The notes under the pieces are model-generated. The model was not told where the DNA came from. It searched no databases and saw only the letters and a list, made by a program, of their open reading frames with translations. Of a DNA stretch of 15,726 nucleotides, positions 5,723-15,726 are shown piece after piece. The DNA comes from Zymomonas sp. (GTDB lineage Bacteria; Pseudomonadota; Alphaproteobacteria; Sphingomonadales; Sphingomonadaceae): positions 1 through 15,726 of the forward strand of contig JAIYAJ010000341.1 in assembly GCA_027489105.1 (NCBI GenBank), given 5' to 3'. Every line of letters begins with the position of its first letter. Position 1 is the first letter of the stretch. The translations under genes were made by a program, and so were the position numbers.

Positions 5723-6298
5723 TTAGCGGGGCCACATCCGTCGAAATTCGGGATGACCGTCAACGAATTGATGCTTCAACGCCCCCGCAATGTGCAGGAT
5801 CAACAGGATAATCAACGCATATCCGCCGATTTCGTGCATCTCTCCCAAAAGGCCATGCAGGCGCTCCTTCGGCTCGTCGGGCATGGCCATGATGAAGGAC
5901 AGGCGCGGCCATTCGAACAGACCGAACAACTTCATCGGGACTTCGGGTGCGGCCTTCCAGGCGCTGTCGTGCATCCATCCGGTCAGCGGCATGAACAGCA
6001 TGATCGCATAGAGCCCGAAATGCGCGACATGGGCGAGCCCCCGTTCCCAGGCCGCCATGCCCGCCGAGAAAGGAGGCGGCTTGTGCCCCAGACGCCACAA
6101 TATCCTCAGCAGGACCAACCCGAGCACCGTTATGCCGATCGACTTGTGGGTGTCGATAGCGAAGCGGATATTTTCCTCGGGGAGCTTTTCGGCAAGAAGG
6201 CCAAGCGCAAGATTGCCGATCATCAGCAGGGCGACGAGCCAGTGGGCGACAATCGCGGGCGTCGTGTAGCGGCCCGCAAGCCCCGGTTCATCCGCCAT
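5723..6298 (-). CDS. Cytochrome b561 family membrane protein
   Basis: A 191-residue inner-membrane dihaem cytochrome of the bacterial b561 (CybB-like) family, which moves electrons between the quinone pool and other carriers; E. coli CybB oxidises superoxide to feed ubiquinone. Four membrane segments can be read: around residues 15-35, 49-66, 86-106 and 155-175. Candidate haem ligands are His19 (VAHWLVALL), His51 in the THKSIG motif, His144 or His155 region histidines near LHGLLGEMHE, and His in LILHIAGALKHQF near the C-terminus. ATG at 6298 has GGGAG (6311-6307) eight bases upstream. It is the first gene of the minus-strand run ending with cfa, 63 bases ahead of folE. A role in oxidative stress would fit its neighbours but is inferred. 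Confidence 0.9.
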   Translation of the reverse strand: MADEPGLAGRYTTPAIVAHWLVALLMIGNLALGLLAEKLPEENIRFAIDTHKSIGITVLGLVLLRILWRLGHKPPPFSAGMAAWERGLAHVAHFGLYAIMLFMPLTGWMHDSAWKAAPEVPMKLFGLFEWPRLSFIMAMPDEPKERLHGLLGEMHEIGGYALIILLILHIAGALKHQFVDGHPEFRRMWPR

Positions 6299-7864: not shown

Positions 7865-7882
7865 GCCGCCTGGTCAGGCGGC
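7865..7882. terminator. GC hairpin between convergent glycosyltransferase and phosphodiesterase
   Basis: GCCGCCTG and CAGGCGGC form a near-continuous palindrome over the 12-base gap between the two convergent stop codons, overlapping the end of the minus-strand gene. It could act as a shared 3'-end hairpin. It has no T-run, so it is only a possible terminator. Confidence 0.35.
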
Positions 7883-8743
7883 AGCGGCGCCCGGCTCGGC
7901 AACCTCATGCTCTTCGGCGAGCGCCTGGACGAGCGGTTGAAGACGCCGATCGAACCGCGCCAGCACATCGGGGGCTCCGACCTGTGCATGGTGGGTGACG
8001 AAGCCCTCGCCGCTCCACAGATGCAGCGCAACGCCGGGATGCTCGGCCACGATCATCGGACGCTCGTCGGGACAGGCGGGGTCGATCGGGGCCATCTCCA
8101 GCGCGACCTGCGGCGCCGTCGACGGCGCGACCGCAAGCATCCGGCCATGCCACTGCGTCGTGATCGAGCGGTGGATATGCCCCGTGATCATGGTGACGTT
8201 CGGGTGGTCGCCAATGGCCTTGTCGAGCGTCACCACCCAGGGCTCGGTCGGGTGTGCCGTCATCCAGGGAATGCCCGTCTCGATCGGCGGGTGGTGGAGG
8301 ACGATCAGAACGGGCAGGCCTGGGACTTCCGCGAGACGCGCCTTCAACCAGGCCGCACGGCGGTGGCAAAAGGCCCCGCCATGGTGGCCGGGGTCGAGCG
8401 TGTCGAGAACGATGATGCGAACGCCGGGTTCGTCGATCACATATTGCACGAAGCCGTCCTGCATCGGGAGGTCGGGAAAGACCTCGCGCATCGCGGTTCG
8501 ATCGTCATGATTGCCGGTGCAAAGATGAACCGGAAAGGTGCAGTCTGCGATCAGATCGCGCAGCCGTTCATAGCTTTCCCGGTCTCCATTGTCGGTCAGG
8601 TCGCCGGTCAGGAACAGGCGGTCAGGCGGCAGCGCAAGGCCCTTCACATAATCGATGGCTGCCGCGACCCGCCGGAAGTTGAGCTCGTCGGGATTGTTCT
8701 TCTCGAACCCGATATGCAGATCGGTCAATTGGGCGAACAGCAT
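7874..8743 (-). CDS. Class III cyclic-nucleotide phosphodiesterase-like metallophosphoesterase (CpdA/Rv0805/GpdQ type)
   Basis: A 289-residue soluble calcineurin-like phosphoesterase. The binuclear metal site is complete: DLH at 8-10, GDLTDNG at 47-53, GNHD at 77-80, LHHPP at 149-153 and GHIH at 188-191. Length and motif spacing fit class III phosphodiesterases, whose members hydrolyse cAMP (CpdA, SpdA, Rv0805) or glycerophosphodiesters (GpdQ); sequence alone does not settle the substrate. ATG at 8743 is chosen over the longer frame from 8788 because GAGGG (8755-8751) lies seven bases upstream and MLFAQLTDLH puts the first motif at the usual position. It follows the decahaem cytochrome gene by 126 bases. 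A CRP-like operator in that gap and the cyclic-nucleotide-binding domains two genes upstream favour a cAMP or cGMP role. Confidence 0.88.
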   Translation of the reverse strand: MLFAQLTDLHIGFEKNNPDELNFRRVAAAIDYVKGLALPPDRLFLTGDLTDNGDRESYERLRDLIADCTFPVHLCTGNHDDRTAMREVFPDLPMQDGFVQYVIDEPGVRIIVLDTLDPGHHGGAFCHRRAAWLKARLAEVPGLPVLIVLHHPPIETGIPWMTAHPTEPWVVTLDKAIGDHPNVTMITGHIHRSITTQWHGRMLAVAPSTAPQVALEMAPIDPACPDERPMIVAEHPGVALHLWSGEGFVTHHAQVGAPDVLARFDRRLQPLVQALAEEHEVAEPGAAAA

Positions 8744-8824
8744 GCGATTACCCTCTACTCCGCCGAAAAACTCTCGGCCCAACTCCAACGCTGCTGAAAG
8801 TCACCACGACCAGCGATCGAACGC

Positions 8825-8869: not shown

Positions 8870-10693
8870 TCAGACTCCCGTTCCCGCCTGCTTGAGCGCC
8901 TTTTCTTCGATATGCTCCGCCGCCTTGCCCCGCTCGCGGCTCTTGCGGACCGCCGAGGGAGCGAACTCGGTGCGATGATAATCGTGGCAGAGCGCACAGG
9001 AGGACGGCACCTCCTTATGCGCGTCCTGGCTGCCGTGGCATTCCTGGCACGTCGCCAGCTTGGGCAGGTTCACATCGTTGGCCGAGCGCGACAGATTGAC
9101 CGCGTGGCAGCTCGTGCAGCTCTCGGTTTCGTGTGCCGAATGGTCGAACCAGCCCTTCTTGAGATAGCGGCTCGCCAGTTGCACCGGCGCGACGGCGAAG
9201 GGCGTCGTCCGGTTCCCCGTCTCGCGGATGACGTGGCAGTCGAAACAGGCACCGCCCTTCGAGAAGACCGACCGGATCGCCTGATCGGCATTGCCGACAT
9301 ATAGAGCGCTGGTCGGCGCGACATTGGCGCGATGCGTCGCCGCCATGACCTCTCCCGGCCGACGCCGCTCCATGCCGCCGAGCATCGGCGCGCGCGGCGC
9401 GCCGGCGCGGTAGAAGGCGCGAATATCGGCGATGACCTGTGCCGGATCACCATGGCGCAGCGTGCGGACCGTATCGCCGACCTTGTCGAACGCCAGCGAA
9501 TGGCAGGCGCCGCACGCCGGCTCCATGTTCACCGTGGCGAAGCTCGCCCCGGTCGCATCGCGGACGTGGCAGCTGGCGCAGTCGAGCGGTGCTCCATAGC
9601 CTTCGCCCTTGCCGAGCGTCTTTGCCATCTGCGCGACGCCGTTGGTCTTCGACAGATGGATGTCGTGCGGGAATTTCAGCCCGTTATATTCCTTGGGGTT
9701 CTGATCGAGCGACACGCGGCTGAACATCGGCACGCCGTTGAGCCCCACCGACCGGACCGTCGGCGCGAATTGCGGATGGTGCTTGTCAAAATCCGATGCG
9801 TCCTTGAGCACCGTCTTGATCCGGCTGCTCATGCCGTCATGGCACGTCGTGCAGAAACGCTCGTCGGTCACCGGCATGGCGGTTTCGCCCTGATGCTCGG
9901 TATGGCATTCGACGCAGCGGCCGGGCTTGATCCCGAAGAAACCGCCGACGAACTGTTTCGTCCCCGTCACGATACCCAGCGGGCCCTTGGCGGCGTTGAG
10001 CTTGGCCGGGTCACCATGGTCGTGAACCGTCGTGTGGCAGGCGATGCAGGCGCTGTCCCTGACCGATTCGCCGGGCTTGACGTGACAGGCCTGGCAGTTG
10101 TTTTCGAGCGGCTTGTGCGCGCGCGACAGCTTGCCCGAGGTCCAGAACTCGTCGGCATGGAAAGCGACCTGGCGGGTCGCATCGGTCGGCTGGGTGTTGA
10201 TCGACGTCAGCGGCCAGATCAGGAAAATGGCGAGGACAAGCAGGGCGCCCGCCCAGGCCATTGCGCGCTTGCCCGGCAGCACCGCCGCCAGCGAGAAAAC
10301 GCGCGCTTCCTCCTTGTCTTCCGAAGCGTTGGAAATCGCGCCGACGCGCTCCACCGTGACGATGATCAGACCCTGCTCGTCGCCCTCGCCCGGTTCGATC
10401 GTCAGCGAATGGCTGCCGATGCGGACATTGGCGCCGGGCGACACCGAGAAGCGCTGATGCTCGGTCGACTTGCCGTCGACGACGAAAGGCATGCCGGCCG
10501 TCGCCGCGACTTCGACCATACCGCCGGGGACGGCACGGATCACCGCATGATTCAGTACCACGGCCAGATCGGGCAGATGGATGTCGCTCGACGGGCTGCG
10601 GCCGATGCTCAGTTCGGCCTGGTCGAATCTCTTGGGGCGGACGATGTCCCGCCCATCGGCGGTGCGCGCTACCGTGCGAACGATGAAGCTCAT
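8870..10693 (-). CDS. FHA-like domain fused to membrane-anchored decahaem cytochrome c
   Basis: A 607-residue protein with three parts. Residues 1-115 look like an FHA domain: LSIGR (28-32), SSDIHLPD (35-42), His49, and the IGSHSLTIEPG end (92-102). A single membrane helix at about 144-161, preceded by GKR, places the N-terminus inside. The periplasmic part carries ten CXXCH haem c motifs with first Cys at 200, 216, 260, 281, 372, 394, 483, 526, 549 and 566. FxHxxH-type segments (FPHDIH 341-346, FDHSAH 516-521, DKHHP 303-307) are typical distal haem ligands of c3/c7/NapC-like multihaem proteins. It would receive electrons from the membrane b-type protein encoded 10 bases upstream and carry them into the periplasm. 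The final acceptor is unknown. A putative pThr-contact Ser of the FHA domain is missing (Val46-Leu47 in place of Ser-Arg). Confidence 0.9.
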   Translation of the reverse strand: MSFIVRTVARTADGRDIVRPKRFDQAELSIGRSPSSDIHLPDLAVVLNHAVIRAVPGGMVEVAATAGMPFVVDGKSTEHQRFSVSPGANVRIGSHSLTIEPGEGDEQGLIIVTVERVGAISNASEDKEEARVFSLAAVLPGKRAMAWAGALLVLAIFLIWPLTSINTQPTDATRQVAFHADEFWTSGKLSRAHKPLENNCQACHVKPGESVRDSACIACHTTVHDHGDPAKLNAAKGPLGIVTGTKQFVGGFFGIKPGRCVECHTEHQGETAMPVTDERFCTTCHDGMSSRIKTVLKDASDFDKHHPQFAPTVRSVGLNGVPMFSRVSLDQNPKEYNGLKFPHDIHLSKTNGVAQMAKTLGKGEGYGAPLDCASCHVRDATGASFATVNMEPACGACHSLAFDKVGDTVRTLRHGDPAQVIADIRAFYRAGAPRAPMLGGMERRRPGEVMAATHRANVAPTSALYVGNADQAIRSVFSKGGACFDCHVIRETGNRTTPFAVAPVQLASRYLKKGWFDHSAHETESCTSCHAVNLSRSANDVNLPKLATCQECHGSQDAHKEVPSSCALCHDYHRTEFAPSAVRKSRERGKAAEHIEEKALKQAGTGV

Positions 10694-10703
10694 CTGCGCG
10701 ATC

Positions 10704-11582
10704 TCACCAGTAATAGAAGACGGAAACGATGTGGACGAGCAACGCCGCGATCAGGGCGAAGGTCACCGGCACATGGATGTAGAGCCAGATCTCCAGCAGC
10801 GCCTTGTAACGTAGATGCTTCCGAATGCGCGACAGAGAGGACTTCTTGCGCTCCAGCAGAACCTCGACATGATCGAGCGGATCCGGACCTGCCTCCTGCC
10901 GGCTCTTATGCTCACGCACCGCCGCAAGGGCCGCGCGGGTACCGCAACGATTATAACGCCCGGTCAGGCGTGCGATCAGGCCCCCACCGAAGGGATCATC
11001 CTCCAGCGCCATGCGCACGATCGCCGCGCCCTCGGCATCGAGCGGCTGGGCGGCTTCGTTGAGCTGGCGGTCGATCATCCGGAGATTGTCGAGCATCTGG
11101 ATCTGGGTCGTCTCGCCGCGATTGGCGGACAAAGCCTGGGGCAGCATCGCATAAGCCGCGATCCCGAACACGCCCGAGACGATCACCAGCAGCATCAGCA
11201 CATAAGCGAGCGTGTGGACGTTCCACCCGAAGTCGAAGCCGGTGTGGAGCGTTCCGATGACGATCAGCGCCAGCCCCAGATAGACATGCGCCGACGTCCA
11301 GGACTTGAGCGACCAGCGACCGGGCGTGATCGCCCTTTTGCGGACGCCCAGCAACGACAGCCACAGGATCAGGGCGACGCCGGCCGTGCCGGTGACATAG
11401 CCATAGATGCTGCCGCCATTGGGCCTGGGCTGAACGTCGTTGACCGCATAGACGAACAGGCACAGCAGGCTGACCACCACCGCGATCTTCAGCCATTTAT
11501 AGCGCTGAAACCGCAGGAAACCCTCATGATCCGAGGCGCGCTCGCGACCCGATGTCGCCTGACGAAGAGGCTTGCTCGCCAT
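10704..11582 (-). CDS. Membrane b-type cytochrome subunit, putative dihaem
   Basis: A 292-residue integral membrane protein I do not recognise as a named family. Membrane segments lie at about 31-48, 60-80, 97-115, 122-147 and 262-290. His99 and His113 in segment 3, and His270 and His284 in segment 5, are each 14 residues apart, the spacing used for haem b ligation in cytochrome b and ferric-reductase-type proteins, so two stacked b hemes are likely. His123 is a further candidate. Positive residues put the N-terminus and the large loop 148-261 in the cytosol, where the loop can meet the flavo-iron-sulfur protein. The ATG shares one base with the upstream stop (TGATG), implying coupled translation, and the downstream decahaem gene starts 10 bases after its stop. 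Function as the membrane electron carrier of this unit is inferred. Confidence 0.82.
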   Translation of the reverse strand: MASKPLRQATSGRERASDHEGFLRFQRYKWLKIAVVVSLLCLFVYAVNDVQPRPNGGSIYGYVTGTAGVALILWLSLLGVRKRAITPGRWSLKSWTSAHVYLGLALIVIGTLHTGFDFGWNVHTLAYVLMLLVIVSGVFGIAAYAMLPQALSANRGETTQIQMLDNLRMIDRQLNEAAQPLDAEGAAIVRMALEDDPFGGGLIARLTGRYNRCGTRAALAAVREHKSRQEAGPDPLDHVEVLLERKKSSLSRIRKHLRYKALLEIWLYIHVPVTFALIAALLVHIVSVFYYW

Positions 11583-14035
11583 CAGGCGTCATCCCTTTGC
11601 AAACGGGCAACCGTCAGAAATTCCTCAGGCGCGACGCGGATCGCGGCGCCGGTGGGGCAGGCGCGCACGCAGCTCGGCCCGCCCTCGATGCCCGAACACA
11701 TATCGCATTTCACGGCCCGCTTCGCCTTCTCGACGCCAGGCGTCGCATTGGCATAGGCCCATTCGTGGCTCGGCTCGCCGGGCCCCGGCCCCTGACCGAA
11801 CAGGAACCATTTCCACAGGCTCGGCTTCTTCGGCGGCTCCTTCTCCATGCGGATCACGCCATAGGGGCAGTTGCGCTGACAATTGCCGCAGCCGATACAA
11901 GTGTCGTCGATATAGACCTCGCCGTCCTGGCCGCGATGGATAGCGGTCGGGGGGCAGTCGGCCATGCAATGCGGATGCTCGCAGTGGCGGCAGCTGGTCG
12001 GCACATGGAGATGCGCAAAGGTACGCCCCGCCTCGCGGTCGAGCCGCGAAATGCCTTCATGGCTGTCGGCGCAGGCTTTTTCGCAGTTATCGCAGCCGAC
12101 GCAGAGATTCTCGTCGATCAGCAGCACGTCGGTTGCCTCGCCCACGCCATTGTCGACGAGGAAATTGGCGATCGAACTGTACATGTCGACGACCGTCGCG
12201 AAGCTGTCCTTCTTCGCTTCGATGAAGGAGGCAAGGTCCTCGCGCTCCCCGATCGCGGTCTTGGCACGGGCGAAGAATTGAGGCTTGGCCTCGAGCAGGC
12301 GGTGGAAGGCCGGGCCGTTGAGTTTGATGACCTCGGACTTCACCGCCGCGCGGACCGTCTGCTTGCGGATGCCGTTGTCGAACAGCTCAAGCTCGCCGAC
12401 ATAATTGCCGGCGGGGACGTAGGACAGGAACACCGGCTTGCCGCCGATCGACTTCTCCACCACGACCGAGCCGGAGCGGATGACGTAGACGTCGGTCCCC
12501 TCCTCGCCCTCGCGGAAAATCGTCTCGCCGGCGCGCACGCCCTTGATCTCGGCGGTTTCGAGCAATTCGGCCAGATCGGCGGACTGGAGGCCCGACTGCC
12601 ACATCTGGAGCAGCTGGCGCTCGGTCGAGATGCGGGTGACCGCGCGCTTCACGCCGGGCACGGAGGCCATCAGCTTGAGAATCGCATTGCGCGGAATCTC
12701 GACCACGATGGTCTCGGCGATCGAGCGGATGGTGGAACCGCGGCGACGGCCCGACACGAGGCCGACCTCGCCGAAGATCGAGCCTTCCGGGATGACGATG
12801 CCGGTCGACCGGCCATCGGGCAGCGGGATATCGACGGAGCCCTGCGCGATGCAGAAGAGCGACGATCCCGGCGCGTTCTTCTCGAAGATGATCTCGTTCT
12901 TGCCGTAATAGCGGACGTCCGAGTCGAGCATGAACTCGCGCATCTGCAGCGGCGACAGATCGTTGAGAATCTGCACCTGCGTGCGGATGAACTCCAGCCA
13001 CTCGTCGACCGACTTGCGGACCGGCAGGTTGACGAACTTGCCTTCCAGGATCGGCTCGTCGGCCGGCTTCAGCGAGGTGTTGCCATTGATGAACTCGACG
13101 ACGTCATAGCCCTGGTTCATGCAGTGCTTGATCAGCGGATAGCCCGCGAGCGCGCCGATGACGTAGATACCGGGGTTGGTGGTCTCGAACTGCGGCGACA
13201 GGGTCGGAAAGGCCTCGCGATCGGGGCTGGTGAACTGGATGCCGCATTCCTCGATGAACTTGCGCGGCGCGGCCGACCCCATACGGGCGATGATGCGGTC
13301 GCAGCGGATGCGCGCCTCGCCATCGCGCGTATCGAGCACCAGATGACCGGCCTCGATGCGATTCGGCGCCGTGTCGGTCATCACGTTGATGCGCCCCTCG
13401 TCGCGCGCCTGCATCAGCAGCTTGACGTTGGCGCCCTTGGCGCGGCTGAAGTCTGCGGAGCGGTTGAGGATCGTGACGACGTTACCCTGCGCAAGATCCT
13501 GCGCGAGGCCGAGGGCATTTTCGATACCGGCGTCGCCCGAACCGACGACGGTGATATGCTCGTCGACATATTCGCCGGGATCGTCGAGCTGATACTGGAC
13601 GGTGACGCCGCTGCCTTCGGCGCCCGGACAGCGCAGCAGGTTCGGATTGCCCTGCGTCCCGATCGCCAGGATGATCGCTTCGGCCTTGATCTCGGCCTTG
13701 TCGGCGAGGAGGATCGTGAAGTCCCCCTTCTGGCCGGTGATCGCCTTCACTTCGCTGTTCAGCCGGACATTGATGCCGGCGGCGGCGGCCTGCTCGTCCC
13801 AGATGCCGAGAATTTTCTCGCGCTTACCTGCGTCGAAGTCCACGTCCGAGCGCAGCACGAGCTGACTCGGCGTCGCCATGACGTGCTTGCCCTTCTGATA
13901 TTTGAAGATCGTATCGGAAAGATGATCGGTCTTTTCGAGCAGGACGTGCGAAAGACCGAGCTTGGCCGCATGCGCCGCCGCGCTGAGCCCCGCCGGCCCA
14001 GAGCCAACGATGGCTATCCGGTAGGTATCCGCCAC
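11582..14035 (-). CDS. FAD/NAD(P) oxidoreductase - two cNMP-binding domains - four-cluster ferredoxin fusion
   Basis: An 817-residue cytosolic protein with no signal peptide and four modules. Residues 1-320 are a thioredoxin-reductase-fold flavoprotein: FAD motif VGSGPAG (10-16), NAD(P) motif VVGSGDAG (163-170), and YVIGALAGYP (291-300) near the flavin. The CxxC of true thioredoxin reductase is absent, so it resembles YpdA-like single-electron-relay reductases. About 360-475 and 483-590 are two cyclic-nucleotide-binding domains, each with a phosphate cassette (FGE 421-423 with Arg432; VGE 546-548 with Arg557). Residues 640-800 hold sixteen Cys in four groups (645/648/651/655, 682/685/690/694, 713/716/719/723, 777/780/789/793), as in DmsB/HycB-type four [4Fe-4S] subunits. 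The start is GTG at 14035, with AGGGGG (14046-14041) five bases upstream. It opens a three-gene operon with the b-type and decahaem proteins and would supply their electrons. Confidence 0.93.
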   Translation of the reverse strand: MADTYRIAIVGSGPAGLSAAAHAAKLGLSHVLLEKTDHLSDTIFKYQKGKHVMATPSQLVLRSDVDFDAGKREKILGIWDEQAAAAGINVRLNSEVKAITGQKGDFTILLADKAEIKAEAIILAIGTQGNPNLLRCPGAEGSGVTVQYQLDDPGEYVDEHITVVGSGDAGIENALGLAQDLAQGNVVTILNRSADFSRAKGANVKLLMQARDEGRINVMTDTAPNRIEAGHLVLDTRDGEARIRCDRIIARMGSAAPRKFIEECGIQFTSPDREAFPTLSPQFETTNPGIYVIGALAGYPLIKHCMNQGYDVVEFINGNTSLKPADEPILEGKFVNLPVRKSVDEWLEFIRTQVQILNDLSPLQMREFMLDSDVRYYGKNEIIFEKNAPGSSLFCIAQGSVDIPLPDGRSTGIVIPEGSIFGEVGLVSGRRRGSTIRSIAETIVVEIPRNAILKLMASVPGVKRAVTRISTERQLLQMWQSGLQSADLAELLETAEIKGVRAGETIFREGEEGTDVYVIRSGSVVVEKSIGGKPVFLSYVPAGNYVGELELFDNGIRKQTVRAAVKSEVIKLNGPAFHRLLEAKPQFFARAKTAIGEREDLASFIEAKKDSFATVVDMYSSIANFLVDNGVGEATDVLLIDENLCVGCDNCEKACADSHEGISRLDREAGRTFAHLHVPTSCRHCEHPHCMADCPPTAIHRGQDGEVYIDDTCIGCGNCQRNCPYGVIRMEKEPPKKPSLWKWFLFGQGPGPGEPSHEWAYANATPGVEKAKRAVKCDMCSGIEGGPSCVRACPTGAAIRVAPEEFLTVARLQRDDA

Positions 14036-14164
14036 TGATTCCCCCTGCCCCGTTTTCCCTCGCCGCCGAGCCAGCGGCCAAGTCTCGACATAGGCTTTCC
14101 CCGGCTGCCCTCCGGAAAACGCTACGTCTGCCCCAGAGCCACTCTATCAGCTTCGACGCGTTCC

Positions 14165-14193
14165 GCTAGACTTTCCTTAGCATAGGCTGTCAA
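14165..14193 (-). promoter_or_regulatory. Putative sigma-70 promoter of the electron-transfer operon
   Basis: On the minus strand a perfect TTGACA -35 (14193-14188) is followed by a 17-base spacer and TCTAGC (14170-14165), a weak -10. It would start RNA near 14158 and leave an untranslated leader of about 120 bases before the GTG at 14035. It overlaps the region upstream of the divergent TPR gene. No FNR (TTGAT-N4-ATCAA) or CRP box was seen in the 188-base gap. An 8-base direct repeat CATAGGCT occurs near 14090 and 14181. Confidence 0.4.
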
Positions 14194-14223
14194 AGCCCAT
14201 AGTCTTCTATTGTGGAGAGAAAT

Positions 14224-15192
14224 GTGACGAAGGACAGTGGCTCGACCAAGGGCTTTTCCCTCCCGTTCGCGCGCGTCGCGCTCATCCTCGCTGCGCTGGT
14301 CGCACTCGCTGCGGTCGCCGTGGCGGTGCTCCGCTCGGGTGCCGGATCGCCGGAATCCGGCGCCGAGAAAGCCGAGGCAACGGCCGTTCCCGAGGTCGAG
14401 ACGATGATCGCCGGGCTCGAAAAGAAGCTGCAGGACAATCCCCAGGACGCGCGGGGCTGGCACCTCCTCGGCCAGGCTTATTATCATGTCGGCCGTTATC
14501 CCGACGCGGTGAAAGCCTATTCCCGCGCGGTCGAACTCGATCCGAAGGATGCCGAAGCCTGGTCGGCGCTGGGCGAGGTTCAGGTTCTGACCGGGCCCGG
14601 CAAGATCACCCCCGAGATGCACAAGTCCTTCGAGATGGCGCTGAAGCTCGACCCGAAGGATTTCCGCGCCCGCTATTTCCTCGCGATCGAGAAGAACGAG
14701 AGCGGCGACAACAAGCAAGCGCTCGACGATCTGGTCGCAATCGTGAACGAAAGCCCCGCCGACGCCCCCTGGCTTCAGCCCGTGCGCGAACTGGCCGAGC
14801 GAATCTCCAAGCAGCATGGCCTGCCGATCGAAGGACGGATGAAGGAAGCCGAGGCGGCTCCGCCCCCGGTTTCGGCCCCGACCATGGGGGCCGGCGGCCA
14901 GATCGCGGCGGCCGGCATTCCCGGCCCGAGTTCCGCCGATCTCCAGGCGGCAAGCCGGATGACGCCGACCCAGCAGGACGAGATGGCGCGCGGCATGGTC
15001 GCCCGACTTGCCGCCCGGCTGGAGGAAAAACCCCGCGATGCGGATGGCTGGATTCGCCTGATGCGCGCGCGACTGGTGCTCAAGGACCCGGCCGGTGCCC
15101 GCCAGGCGCTCACCAAGGCGAAGGCCGCCTTTACCGGCGACACGGCCCAGATCGCCCGGTTCGACGAGGCTGCCCGGACGCTGGGCCTGTAA
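14224..15192 (+). CDS. CcmI/CycH-like TPR protein, cytochrome c maturation
   Basis: A 322-residue protein with one N-terminal membrane helix (about 16-36) and a periplasmic TPR region. TPR-like helices span about 58-196 (LLGQAYYHVGRYPDAV 81-96, and KSFEMALKLDPKDFRARYFL 134-153), a Pro/Ala-rich linker follows (210-240), then a helical C-terminal block (247-322) containing RGMVARLAARLEEKPRDADGW. This architecture matches the periplasmic part of CcmI, the chaperone that hands apocytochrome c to the haem lyase; canonical CcmI has two membrane helices, here one. GTG at 14224 is preferred to GTG at 14212 because GGAG (14214-14217) lies six bases before it. No other ccm gene is visible. It diverges from the multihaem cytochrome operon, whose product needs ten haem attachments, so a dedicated role is plausible but unproven. 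A generic TPR protein is the alternative. Confidence 0.78.
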   Translation: MTKDSGSTKGFSLPFARVALILAALVALAAVAVAVLRSGAGSPESGAEKAEATAVPEVETMIAGLEKKLQDNPQDARGWHLLGQAYYHVGRYPDAVKAYSRAVELDPKDAEAWSALGEVQVLTGPGKITPEMHKSFEMALKLDPKDFRARYFLAIEKNESGDNKQALDDLVAIVNESPADAPWLQPVRELAERISKQHGLPIEGRMKEAEAAPPPVSAPTMGAGGQIAAAGIPGPSSADLQAASRMTPTQQDEMARGMVARLAARLEEKPRDADGWIRLMRARLVLKDPAGARQALTKAKAAFTGDTAQIARFDEAARTLGL

Positions 15193-15269: not shown

Positions 15270-15726
15270 TCAGGCGGCGTCGCCGGCTTTCTCCTTGGCC
15301 TTCTTCGAGAAGACTCGGACCGGGTCCTTGCGGCCCTCGACCACATCCTTGTCGACCATGATCTCGTCGACACCGTCCATCGAGGGCAGGTCGAACATCG
15401 TGTCGAGCAGCAGGCCTTCGAGGATAGAGCGCAGGCCGCGCGCGCCGGTCTTGCGGGTGATCGCCTTGCGGGCAACTGCCACCAGCGCATCATCGGTAAA
15501 GCCGAGCTTGACACCCTCCATCTCGAACAGCTTCTGATACTGCTTTACCAGCGCGTTCTTCGGCTGGGTCAGGATCGCGACCAGCGCCTCCTCGTCGAGG
15601 TCCATCAGTGTCGCGATGACCGGCAGACGTCCGACGAATTCGGGGATCAGACCGAACTTCAGCAGATCCTCTGGCTCGCACTGCTGCAGCGTCTCACCGG
15701 TGCGGCGCTCCTCGGGAGCTGCGACA
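15270..15726 (-). CDS. clpX: ATP-dependent Clp protease ATP-binding subunit ClpX, C-terminal part (5' end outside window)
   Basis: The last 152 residues of ClpX, the AAA+ unfoldase that feeds substrates to the ClpP protease in the cytosol. The frame is open to the window edge; codons before the internal ATG at 15605 encode the [19 protein letters not shown] segment that includes the sensor and arginine-finger region of the AAA+ module. The C-terminal small domain follows, with [15 protein letters not shown], the sensor-2 segment [12 protein letters not shown] and the ending DLPS. The N-terminal zinc domain and Walker motifs lie outside the window. The end of about 20 residues is Lys- and Ala-rich, as is common. 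The gene is unrelated in function to its neighbours and is insulated by the terminator at 15210-15249. Confidence 0.97.

What the first reader, a model, noticed from the sequence alone, without database searches (positions are those of the whole stretch)
8870..14035. Three-gene NAD(P)H-to-periplasm electron conduit with sensing domains at both ends
Three tightly packed genes (1-base overlap, then a 10-base gap) encode a cytosolic FAD and four [4Fe-4S] protein, a membrane protein with two His pairs for b hemes, and a membrane-anchored decahaem c protein. The parts line up as a complete chain across the membrane. Both soluble ends carry signalling modules: two cyclic-nucleotide-binding domains and an FHA-like domain. 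I know of no described respiratory or extracellular-electron-transfer system with this composition; NrfBCD, Dms and Mtr systems use some similar parts in other arrangements. No outer-membrane porin or terminal reductase is nearby, so the acceptor may be soluble or the chain may act in redox sensing. Electron direction is inferred.
Basis: partly seen in the sequence, partly recalled or inferred. Interest (0 to 1): 0.85.

Follow-up and report, generated by a model that had tools for sequence, protein, structure and literature searches.

The report
Inner half of a two-membrane electron conduit
Three bacterial genes look like a wire that carries electrons from the cell's NAD(P)H through the inner membrane, and related genomes that carry them nearly always also carry a separate set of genes for an outer-membrane wire, so together they probably let these bacteria pass electrons to something outside the cell.

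Summary
A, B and C encode an FAD/NAD(P)-type flavoprotein with two cyclic-nucleotide domains and sixteen [4Fe-4S] cysteines, a five-helix protein with two HX13H motifs, and an FHA-like, membrane-anchored decahaem protein. Predicted cofactor ligands are conserved; A-B-C stand together in 75 of 80 relatives (the other 5 stop at contig ends).

(1) B carries the signature of the inner-membrane proteins described in 2017 for the putative porin-cytochrome systems PCC3 and PCC4, so the kind is not undescribed. (2) An outer-membrane side exists: a four-gene cluster (c554-like cytochrome, HbpS-domain lipoprotein, barrel, ~1345-aa decahaem/LVIVD protein) whose giant cytochrome co-occurs with B in 39 both/157 neither/0 discordant of 196 Sphingomonadales genomes, and 66/81/2 of 149 within one genus. 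In six more distant genomes both halves stand on one strand. A class III cyclic-nucleotide phosphodiesterase gene follows C in 68 of 75 loci.

Best reading: an NAD(P)H-driven, possibly cyclic-nucleotide-tuned inner-membrane module feeding a new outer-membrane conduit. Direction, acceptor and gating are inferred. The FHA-like domain is cytosolic and lacks the usual phosphothreonine-binding serine. The window's own genome was not available. New variant of a known (putative) kind.

The parts
11582..14035 (-). Gene A: FAD/NAD(P) flavoprotein domain (residues 1-330, 13046-14035), two cyclic-nucleotide-binding domains (about residues 360-470 and 484-600, within 12236-12958), four-[4Fe-4S] ferredoxin domain (residues 638-812, 11600-12124)
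   Evidence: conservation (16 cluster cysteines; CNB1 E423 and R432 91/91; CNB2 E548 90/91, R557 91/91; G165/G167/D168/A169/E172/N173 91/91); no CXXC in the flavin domain
10704..11582 (-). Gene B: five-helix membrane protein with two WX3HX13H motifs (W95/H99/H113 and W266/H270/H284) and SGXXG (136-140); predicted di-haem b conduit, PCC3/PCC4-type inner-membrane protein
   Evidence: motif definition from PMC5566968
8870..10693 (-). Gene C: FHA-like domain (residues ~22-100), one membrane segment (141-168), periplasmic decahaem domain (CXXCH at 200-570) with ten further conserved His
7874..8743 (-). Constant neighbour: class III (SpdA/CpdA/Rv0805-like) cyclic-nucleotide phosphodiesterase, metal-binding motifs present; the ATG at 8743 is preferred to the TTG at 8788 listed (my choice)
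   Evidence: (same strand after C in 68 of 75 loci that hold C)
14212..15192 (+). Constant divergent neighbour: CcmI/CcmH-type TPR protein of cytochrome c maturation
   Evidence: 75 of 80 loci, in all 75 divergent from A; in L059 a CcmF and a redoxin/CcmG-like gene, and in L033 a CcmH and a CcmI-like gene, stand there too
14036..14211 (.). Divergent intergenic region between A and the ccmI-like gene (presumed promoters)
   Evidence: no convincing FNR- or CRP-like box

Best explanation
A-B-C is the inner-membrane half of a two-membrane electron conduit. A takes hydride from NAD(P)H on FAD and passes single electrons through four [4Fe-4S] clusters to two b haems of B, which cross the inner membrane to the ten bis-His c haems of membrane-anchored C. 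C hands electrons, perhaps through the c554-like tetrahaem protein, to an outer-membrane module made of a beta-barrel, an HbpS-domain lipoprotein and a ~1345-aa decahaem/LVIVD cytochrome, encoded elsewhere in this kind of genome, and from there to an extracellular or outer-face acceptor. The paired CNB domains probably bind cAMP or cGMP and tune electron entry; the linked phosphodiesterase would reset the signal. Shown: gene set, residues, conservation, co-occurrence, gene order, homology to PCC3/PCC4-like proteins. Inferred: cofactors, NAD(P)H use, outward direction, contacts between the halves, acceptor, nucleotide gating, presence of the outer cluster in the window's own strain.
For: Domain content and conserved ligands. 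B (E below 1e-80) and the giant cytochrome co-occur: 39 both / 157 neither / 0 discordant of 196 Sphingomonadales; 66 both / 1 B only / 1 cytochrome only / 81 neither of 149 genomes in the genus of G177, Novosphingobium by its record title (B at E below 1e-30), often on different contigs. 14 genomes of the first draw and 21 of the second hold only a weak B relative; none of these 35 has a strong giant-cytochrome match (1 weak, G265). In six more distant genomes (B 42-47% identical) A-B-C-HbpS-barrel-giant cytochrome stand in this order on one strand (L144-L149). The cytosolic NAD(P) module differs between families: the 90 loci with fused A (L001-L080, L144-L153) show no separate FAD/NAD/2Fe-2S reductase in the fetched stretches, while all 4 complete A'-type, PCC4-like loci (L155-L158) have one, of other Pfam families. 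Such replacement points to NAD(P) coupling.
Against: No biochemistry. He et al. proposed that PCC3/PCC4 inner-membrane proteins exchange electrons with quinone and drew flow from an extracellular donor inwards; a PCC3 inner-membrane gene rose in iron-oxidising cells of Sideroxydans sp. CL21 (PMC12442390 passages). Two discordant genomes (G759, G737) and G654, with the cytochrome but no B (2.7 Mb, cytochrome split over two contigs). Of 13 B-positive genomes in 142 Alphaproteobacteria, 5 show no giant cytochrome: G028 ends inside the HbpS gene, G063, G108 and G123 carry a PCC4-like outer module, G055 shows neither in 20 kb; a sixth, G010, has only a 165-residue piece. L154 (G123) has B and C without A in the fetched stretch. 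Co-occurrence was not corrected on a tree. The barrel model was unusable. The window's genome is not held.
Confidence: 0.55

Rival explanations
1. Quinone-linked electron uptake: the outer module oxidises an extracellular donor (Fe(II), Mn(II), other), C and B pass electrons to the quinone pool, as He et al. drew for PCC3/PCC4; A is a side exit or regulator.
For: PMC5566968 model; PCC3 inner-membrane gene up in iron-oxidising cells; B matches the prokaryotic cytochrome b561/Ni-hydrogenase family just above cut-off.
Against: An NAD(P)-type flavoprotein stands with B in fused-A and A'-type loci, of different protein families; a passive conduit from such donors to NAD+ would run uphill and against the membrane potential (general bioenergetics); the named carriers are mostly genera that I know, from recall, as aerobic heterotrophs.
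Confidence: 0.22
2. Dedicated periplasmic or surface reductase of a soluble toxic acceptor (for example selenite, tellurite or another oxyanion), with the giant decahaem/LVIVD protein as the reductase rather than a wire.
For: Best NCBIfam match of the giant cytochrome is ExtM of the selenite/tellurite operon (E 4.4e-17), but at 61.6 of 800 bits and with a short best stretch; some carrier genera are known to me, from recall only, for tellurite reduction.
Against: The match is partial and far below cut-off; the same inner module pairs with other outer modules (L150, L151), so ABC is not tied to one reductase.
Confidence: 0.13
3. Redox-sensing complex without meaningful electron flux; CNB and FHA-like domains are its outputs.
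For: Conserved CNB phosphate-binding residues; linked phosphodiesterase gene.
Against: Ligands of 17 predicted redox centres (FAD, four Fe-S, two b, ten c haems) are kept and the outer-membrane cytochrome cluster co-occurs; the FHA-like domain lacks the phosphopeptide serine.
Confidence: 0.1

Closest known systems
PCC4, putative porin-cytochrome complex (He et al. 2017, PMC5566968; abstract, passages and sections 16-17 seen)
   Same: Five-helix inner-membrane protein with two WX3HX13H and SGXXG; an Fe-S gene (PF13247) upstream of it (subgroup II); 10-haem and 4-haem cytochromes. Window-type ABC sits beside PCC4-like 5-haem and porin genes in L150 and L151; those of L151 are 62-64% (5-haem) and 48-51% (porin) identical to the PCC4-like loci L156 and L158
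   Different: In the Sphingomonadales-type loci the 5-haem protein and PCC4-like porin are absent, and an HbpS lipoprotein, another barrel and a giant decahaem/LVIVD cytochrome take their place; the NAD(P) flavoprotein is fused to the CNB-ferredoxin protein; linked phosphodiesterase. The labels for my loci rest on gene content, not on the paper's own sequences
PCC3, putative porin-cytochrome complex (PMC5566968; also PMC10734462 and PMC12442390, passages seen)
   Same: Homologous inner-membrane protein (profile match 97.3%, 243 columns, to PCC3-like L160/L163)
   Different: PCC3 uses ~21-haem periplasmic and ~34-haem outer cytochromes (medians); none here
CymA, CbcL/MtrH/MtoC, ImcH inner-membrane modules (PMC6295460, abstract seen)
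   Same: Pass electrons between the cytoplasmic membrane and outer-membrane conduits
   Different: [quoted passage not shown] here a cytosolic flavo-iron-sulfur protein is predicted to feed a di-haem b protein
Gallionellaceae 'Forkhead-associated protein' with 10 CXXCH, in 27 of 87 iron oxidisers (PMC10734462 Table 1, passage seen)
   Same: FHA plus ten haem motifs, like C
   Different: Only listed there under 'Other'; sequences not compared here
Ferric reductase/NOX transmembrane domain (PF01794)
   Same: Two HX13H motifs (stated for that domain in PMC5566968); NAD(P)H/FAD on the cytosolic side (recall)
   Different: PF01794 match of B is below cut-off (15.4 vs 28 bits); the flavin part is of another family and c haems follow

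Membership tests
PCC4-type porin-cytochrome system | Inner-membrane protein with five helices, SGXXG on helix 4, WX3HX13H on helices 3 and 5 | tested here: met
   Motifs in B; profile match to PCC4-like proteins 98.9%, 251 columns; five membrane helices agree with the hydropathy and with the model (pLDDT 73)
PCC4-type porin-cytochrome system | Periplasmic cytochromes with 4, 5 and 10 haems | tested here: not met
   10-haem C present; 4-haem c554-like protein in the partner cluster; no 5-haem relative found in any of the 80 loci L001-L080 (stretches of 4.7-18.6 kb)
PCC4-type porin-cytochrome system | Porin in the same cluster | tested here: not met
   No barrel gene seen in the window; a different barrel (weak Alginate_exp match) stands in the partner cluster; PCC4-like porin next to ABC only in L150 and L151
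PCC4 subgroup II | Fe-S (PF13247) gene upstream of the inner-membrane protein gene | tested here: met
   A matches PF13247 (E 7.8e-11) and lies directly upstream of B
PCC3 | Very large periplasmic and extracellular cytochromes (median 21 and 34 haem sites) | tested here: not met
   C has 10, the giant cytochrome 10, the c554-like protein 4 CXXCH
CymA / CbcL / ImcH quinol oxidases | Multihaem c-type quinol oxidase in the inner membrane | tested here: not met
   B has no CXXCH; C has one anchor and no NapC/NirT match at E 0.1; quinone reactivity itself not testable
Thioredoxin/bacillithiol disulfide reductases | Curated family score or CXXC active site | tested here: not met
   YpdA 124.7 of 339.9 bits, TrxR 64.4 of 343.5 bits; cysteines of the flavin domain at 136, 245, 264, 305 only, no CXXC
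Cyclic-nucleotide-binding domain (functional) | Phosphate-binding Glu and Arg of the binding cassette | tested here: met
   E423/R432 and E548/R557 in 90-91 of 91 rows; the role of the motif is recalled; binding itself not testable
FHA phosphothreonine-binding domain | Conserved Gly-Arg and phosphothreonine-binding Ser | tested here: not met
   G31 86/87 and R32 85/87 kept, but the expected serine position (46) is variable; Pfam FHA below cut-off; motif recalled
Class III cyclic-nucleotide phosphodiesterase (neighbour) | Metallophosphoesterase motifs and SpdA/CpdA similarity | tested here: met
   DLH, GDLTDNG, GNHD, GHIH; SpdA 149 of 400 bits and CpdA 84 of 225 bits, both below the equivalog cut-offs, so family-level only

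The most novel reading that the evidence does not exclude
A cyclic-nucleotide-gated, quinone-independent NAD(P)H-to-cell-surface electron conduit, common but patchy in sphingomonads, built by pairing a PCC4-like inner module with an apparently undescribed outer-membrane module (HbpS-domain lipoprotein, barrel, giant decahaem/LVIVD cytochrome).
Probability: 0.35. Interest if true: 0.9.

Novelty: new variant of a known kind. Interest (0 to 1): 0.74.

Why it matters
[quoted passage not shown] A module that couples NAD(P)H directly to an outer-membrane conduit would be a different way to dump reducing power, and cyclic-nucleotide gating of such a wire would, to my knowledge, be new. The pair of clusters is in 39 of 196 sampled Sphingomonadales and 66 of 149 genomes of one genus, so it would mean that much-studied sphingomonads carry an unrecognised cell-envelope electron pathway, testable by ordinary deletions. 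It also ties the functionally untested PCC3-like and PCC4-like inner-membrane proteins, for which He et al. saw no significant overall homology, to one superfamily with interchangeable cytosolic reductases and outer modules.

Tried and rejected
Viral contigs: no relative of B. Whole genome of the window: not held, so the outer cluster could not be looked for there. AlphaFold model of B: pLDDT 73, no Foldseek match at E <= 0.001, so no fold claim is made. AlphaFold model of the barrel (L053:1025-2845): pLDDT 46, unusable; strand number and any MtrB likeness stay open. Boxes upstream of A in 91 sequences: FNR-like 0 exact, 4 vs 1.5 in shuffles at one mismatch, 25 vs 18 at two; TGTGA-N6-TCACA 0, 1 and 20 vs 7.5 at two mismatches; looser CRP-like pattern no excess. 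Shuffles kept only base composition, so I use none of these. Solved structures: no match for the giant cytochrome at E 0.1, only marginal ones for B and C. Papers: ten searches listed no paper that I could recognise as describing this ABC set or the four-gene outer cluster; the library lacks most subscription papers, I saw listings and the passages named, and supplements could not be opened, so the tables of He et al. (which may list ABC-like clusters among 'other multiheme cytochrome c') were not seen. That third-group reading (cytochrome plus inner-membrane protein without porin, judged less likely EET in that paper) was considered and set aside because of the outer cluster. Phylum-wide search with the B alignment: 14 of 299 genomes, 9 of them at E <= 1e-50; not followed further.

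Full report
What is there. On the minus strand, A (11582-14035), B (10704-11582) and C (8870-10693) are tightly packed as described. The best database match of B is 97% identical and named from Rhizorhabdus sp., so the window is from a sphingomonad. A has an FAD/NAD(P) domain, two CNB domains and a HycB/DmsB-like domain with sixteen cysteines for four [4Fe-4S] clusters. Its flavin domain lacks the CXXC of disulfide reductases. B has five hydrophobic segments and the motifs W95-x3-H99-x13-H113, S136-G137-x2-G140 and W266-x3-H270-x13-H284. C has an FHA-like domain, one membrane segment and ten CXXCH.

Is it conserved? I aligned 91 A, 89 B and 87 C sequences, window included, from these and from eleven more distant loci. 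Kept in at least 98% of rows: the sixteen cysteines of A, H99/H113/H270/H284 of B (89/89), the ten CXXCH of C and ten further histidines of C, which suits ten bis-His haems (pairing inferred). The phosphate-binding Glu/Arg pairs of both CNB domains are kept (E423, R432 and R557 91/91, E548 90/91; motif role recalled). In the FHA-like domain G31 and R32 are kept but the expected phosphothreonine-binding serine is not, so phospho-sensing is doubtful; docking is as likely. Since c haems are attached in the periplasm and C has one anchor, the FHA-like domain should be cytosolic, on the same side as A.

Constant neighbours. A metallophosphoesterase of the SpdA/CpdA/Rv0805 kind (7874-8743) lies after C on the same strand in 68 of the 75 loci that hold C; of the seven misses, L039, L064 and L071 end within 182 bases of the C match, the other four (L024, L033, L054, L074) have 2.5 to 5.4 kb left and lack it. 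In 67 of the 68 it is within 300 bases; in L070 it is 2.8 kb away. A ccmI-like gene stands divergently upstream of A in 75 of 80 loci. In L059 a CcmF and a redoxin-type gene, and in L033 a CcmH and the CcmI-like gene, stand in that place. So c-haem maturation and, by similarity, cyclic-nucleotide turnover are the usual company of this operon.

The missing half. In 38 of 80 loci the fetched DNA also encodes part or all of a ~1345-residue decahaem protein with LVIVD repeats, 37 times on the strand opposite to ABC. Of 40 loci asked, the genomes of 39 were held; all 39 have it, at one place each, some as adjacent pieces. In a draw of 196 Sphingomonadales genomes, 39 have it strongly and exactly the same 39 have B at E below 1e-80. 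In 149 genomes of the genus of G177 (L043, titled Novosphingobium mathurense), 66 have both, 1 only B, 1 only the cytochrome, 81 neither. Genomes with only a weak B relative (14 and 21) have no strong cytochrome match (one weak, G265). In the genus of G001, 14 of 14 have the cytochrome and 13 of 14 have B, the miss (G654) being a 2.7-Mb genome with the cytochrome split over two contigs; the two closest relatives of the window's B (97% and 94%) both have the cytochrome. The window's own genome is not held, so presence there is inferred. The Fisher values ignore kinship; patchiness within one genus is the better argument.

What the second cluster is. In all 20 regions that I fetched around the giant cytochrome (14 chosen as not adjacent to ABC in the fetched stretch, 6 as adjacent) the order is c554-like cytochrome, HbpS-domain protein, barrel, giant cytochrome, all on one strand; in L127 about 3 kb separates the second and third. 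Read in full in L112 and L128 the four are nearly without gaps. The first has four CXXCH; the second has a lipobox-like start (by eye) and HbpS-like matches; the barrel has only a weak Alginate_exp match in L112 and none in L128, and some database relatives are named 'Alginate export domain-containing'. This looks like an outer-membrane porin-cytochrome module of a type for which my paper searches found no description.

More distant genomes. In 142 genomes of the class, B is strong in 13 and the giant cytochrome in 8 (G010 only as a piece), all among the 13. In six loci (L144-L149) A-B-C-HbpS-barrel-giant cytochrome stand in this order on one strand; a c554-like gene is in the stretch in L147 and L148. 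Kinship is not told for these genomes; their B is 42-47% identical to the window's, whereas every strong B of the Sphingomonadales draw is 51% or more, so they are probably outside the order. L153 ends inside the HbpS gene. L150 and L151 carry instead a 5-haem cytochrome, another porin-like protein and c554-like genes; L152 has only a c554-like gene nearby; L154 has B, C, 5-haem and porin-like genes but no A in the fetched stretch.

Relation to what is known. He et al. 2017 (PMC5566968; abstract, passages and sections 16-17 seen) proposed two porin-cytochrome types, PCC3 and PCC4, whose inner-membrane proteins share five helices, SGXXG and two WX3HX13H; PCC4 has cytochromes with 4, 5 and 10 haems, a porin and, in subgroup II, an Fe-S gene upstream. 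B has this signature and matches profiles of PCC4-like (98.9%, 251 columns) and PCC3-like (97.3%, 243 columns) proteins; those labels for my loci rest on gene content. L150 and L151 bridge the two: window-type ABC with PCC4-like outer genes. So the finding is a variant of a described but functionally untested kind. A 2023 pangenome paper lists a 'Forkhead-associated protein' with ten haem motifs in 27 of 87 iron oxidisers; the word occurs once in its main text (PMC10734462, passages).

Why NAD(P)H, and which way. The four complete PCC4-like loci whose A-like protein lacks the flavin domain (L155-L158) each carry a separate FAD/NAD/2Fe-2S reductase, whereas none was found in the fetched stretches of the 90 loci with the fused A. 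PCC3-like L163 has another flavoprotein, with ferredoxin domains, and L160 a relative of it. Exchange of the flavin module suggests that its constant job is to trade electrons with NAD(P)(H). Flow from NAD(P)H outward is downhill and helped by the membrane potential; inward flow to NAD+ through a passive wire from donors such as Fe(II) is not (general bioenergetics). Quinone exchange by B, as He et al. proposed, is not excluded.

Verdict. Observation confirmed; interpretation partly supported and enlarged. Direction, acceptor, nucleotide gating and physical contact of the two halves are inferred.

Noticed in passing
L163:5573-16077 and L160:6246-15699: PCC3-like clusters in Sphingomonadales-draw genomes (G196, G265): flavoprotein (with ferredoxin domains in L163), a ~614-aa protein that in L163 has ankyrin repeats, distant B, 21-CXXCH cytochrome, 19- to 33-CXXCH cytochrome (MtrC/MtrF-like domain in L163), and a ~710-aa protein with weak TPR matches in L163, perhaps the barrel.
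   Followed up: partly
L161:2350-7460: Two adjacent large cytochromes with 11 and 10 CXXCH, weakly related to the giant cytochrome, in the genome (G265) that also has a distant B.
   Followed up: no
L145:13918-14367 and relatives in L146, L147, L153: A ~150-aa protein without Pfam match, encoded between C and the HbpS gene in the one-strand form of the system.
   Followed up: no
L154:5396-12731: B and C with 5-haem cytochrome and porin-like gene but no A in the 20 kb; what feeds B there is unknown.
   Followed up: partly
window 12359-12364 (residues 558-559 of A): The residues after the second CNB arginine are Lys-Gln in the window but mostly Thr/Ser-Ala in relatives (T558 60/91, S558 18/91, A559 87/91), which may change nucleotide preference in this strain.
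   Followed up: no
5723-6298: A separate cytochrome b561 gene lies in the window but is a neighbour in only 2 of 80 loci (L001, L002).
   Followed up: no
15270-15605: Partial frame at the window's end with a ClpB_D2-small domain; reads like the C-terminus of ClpX (recall).
   Followed up: partly
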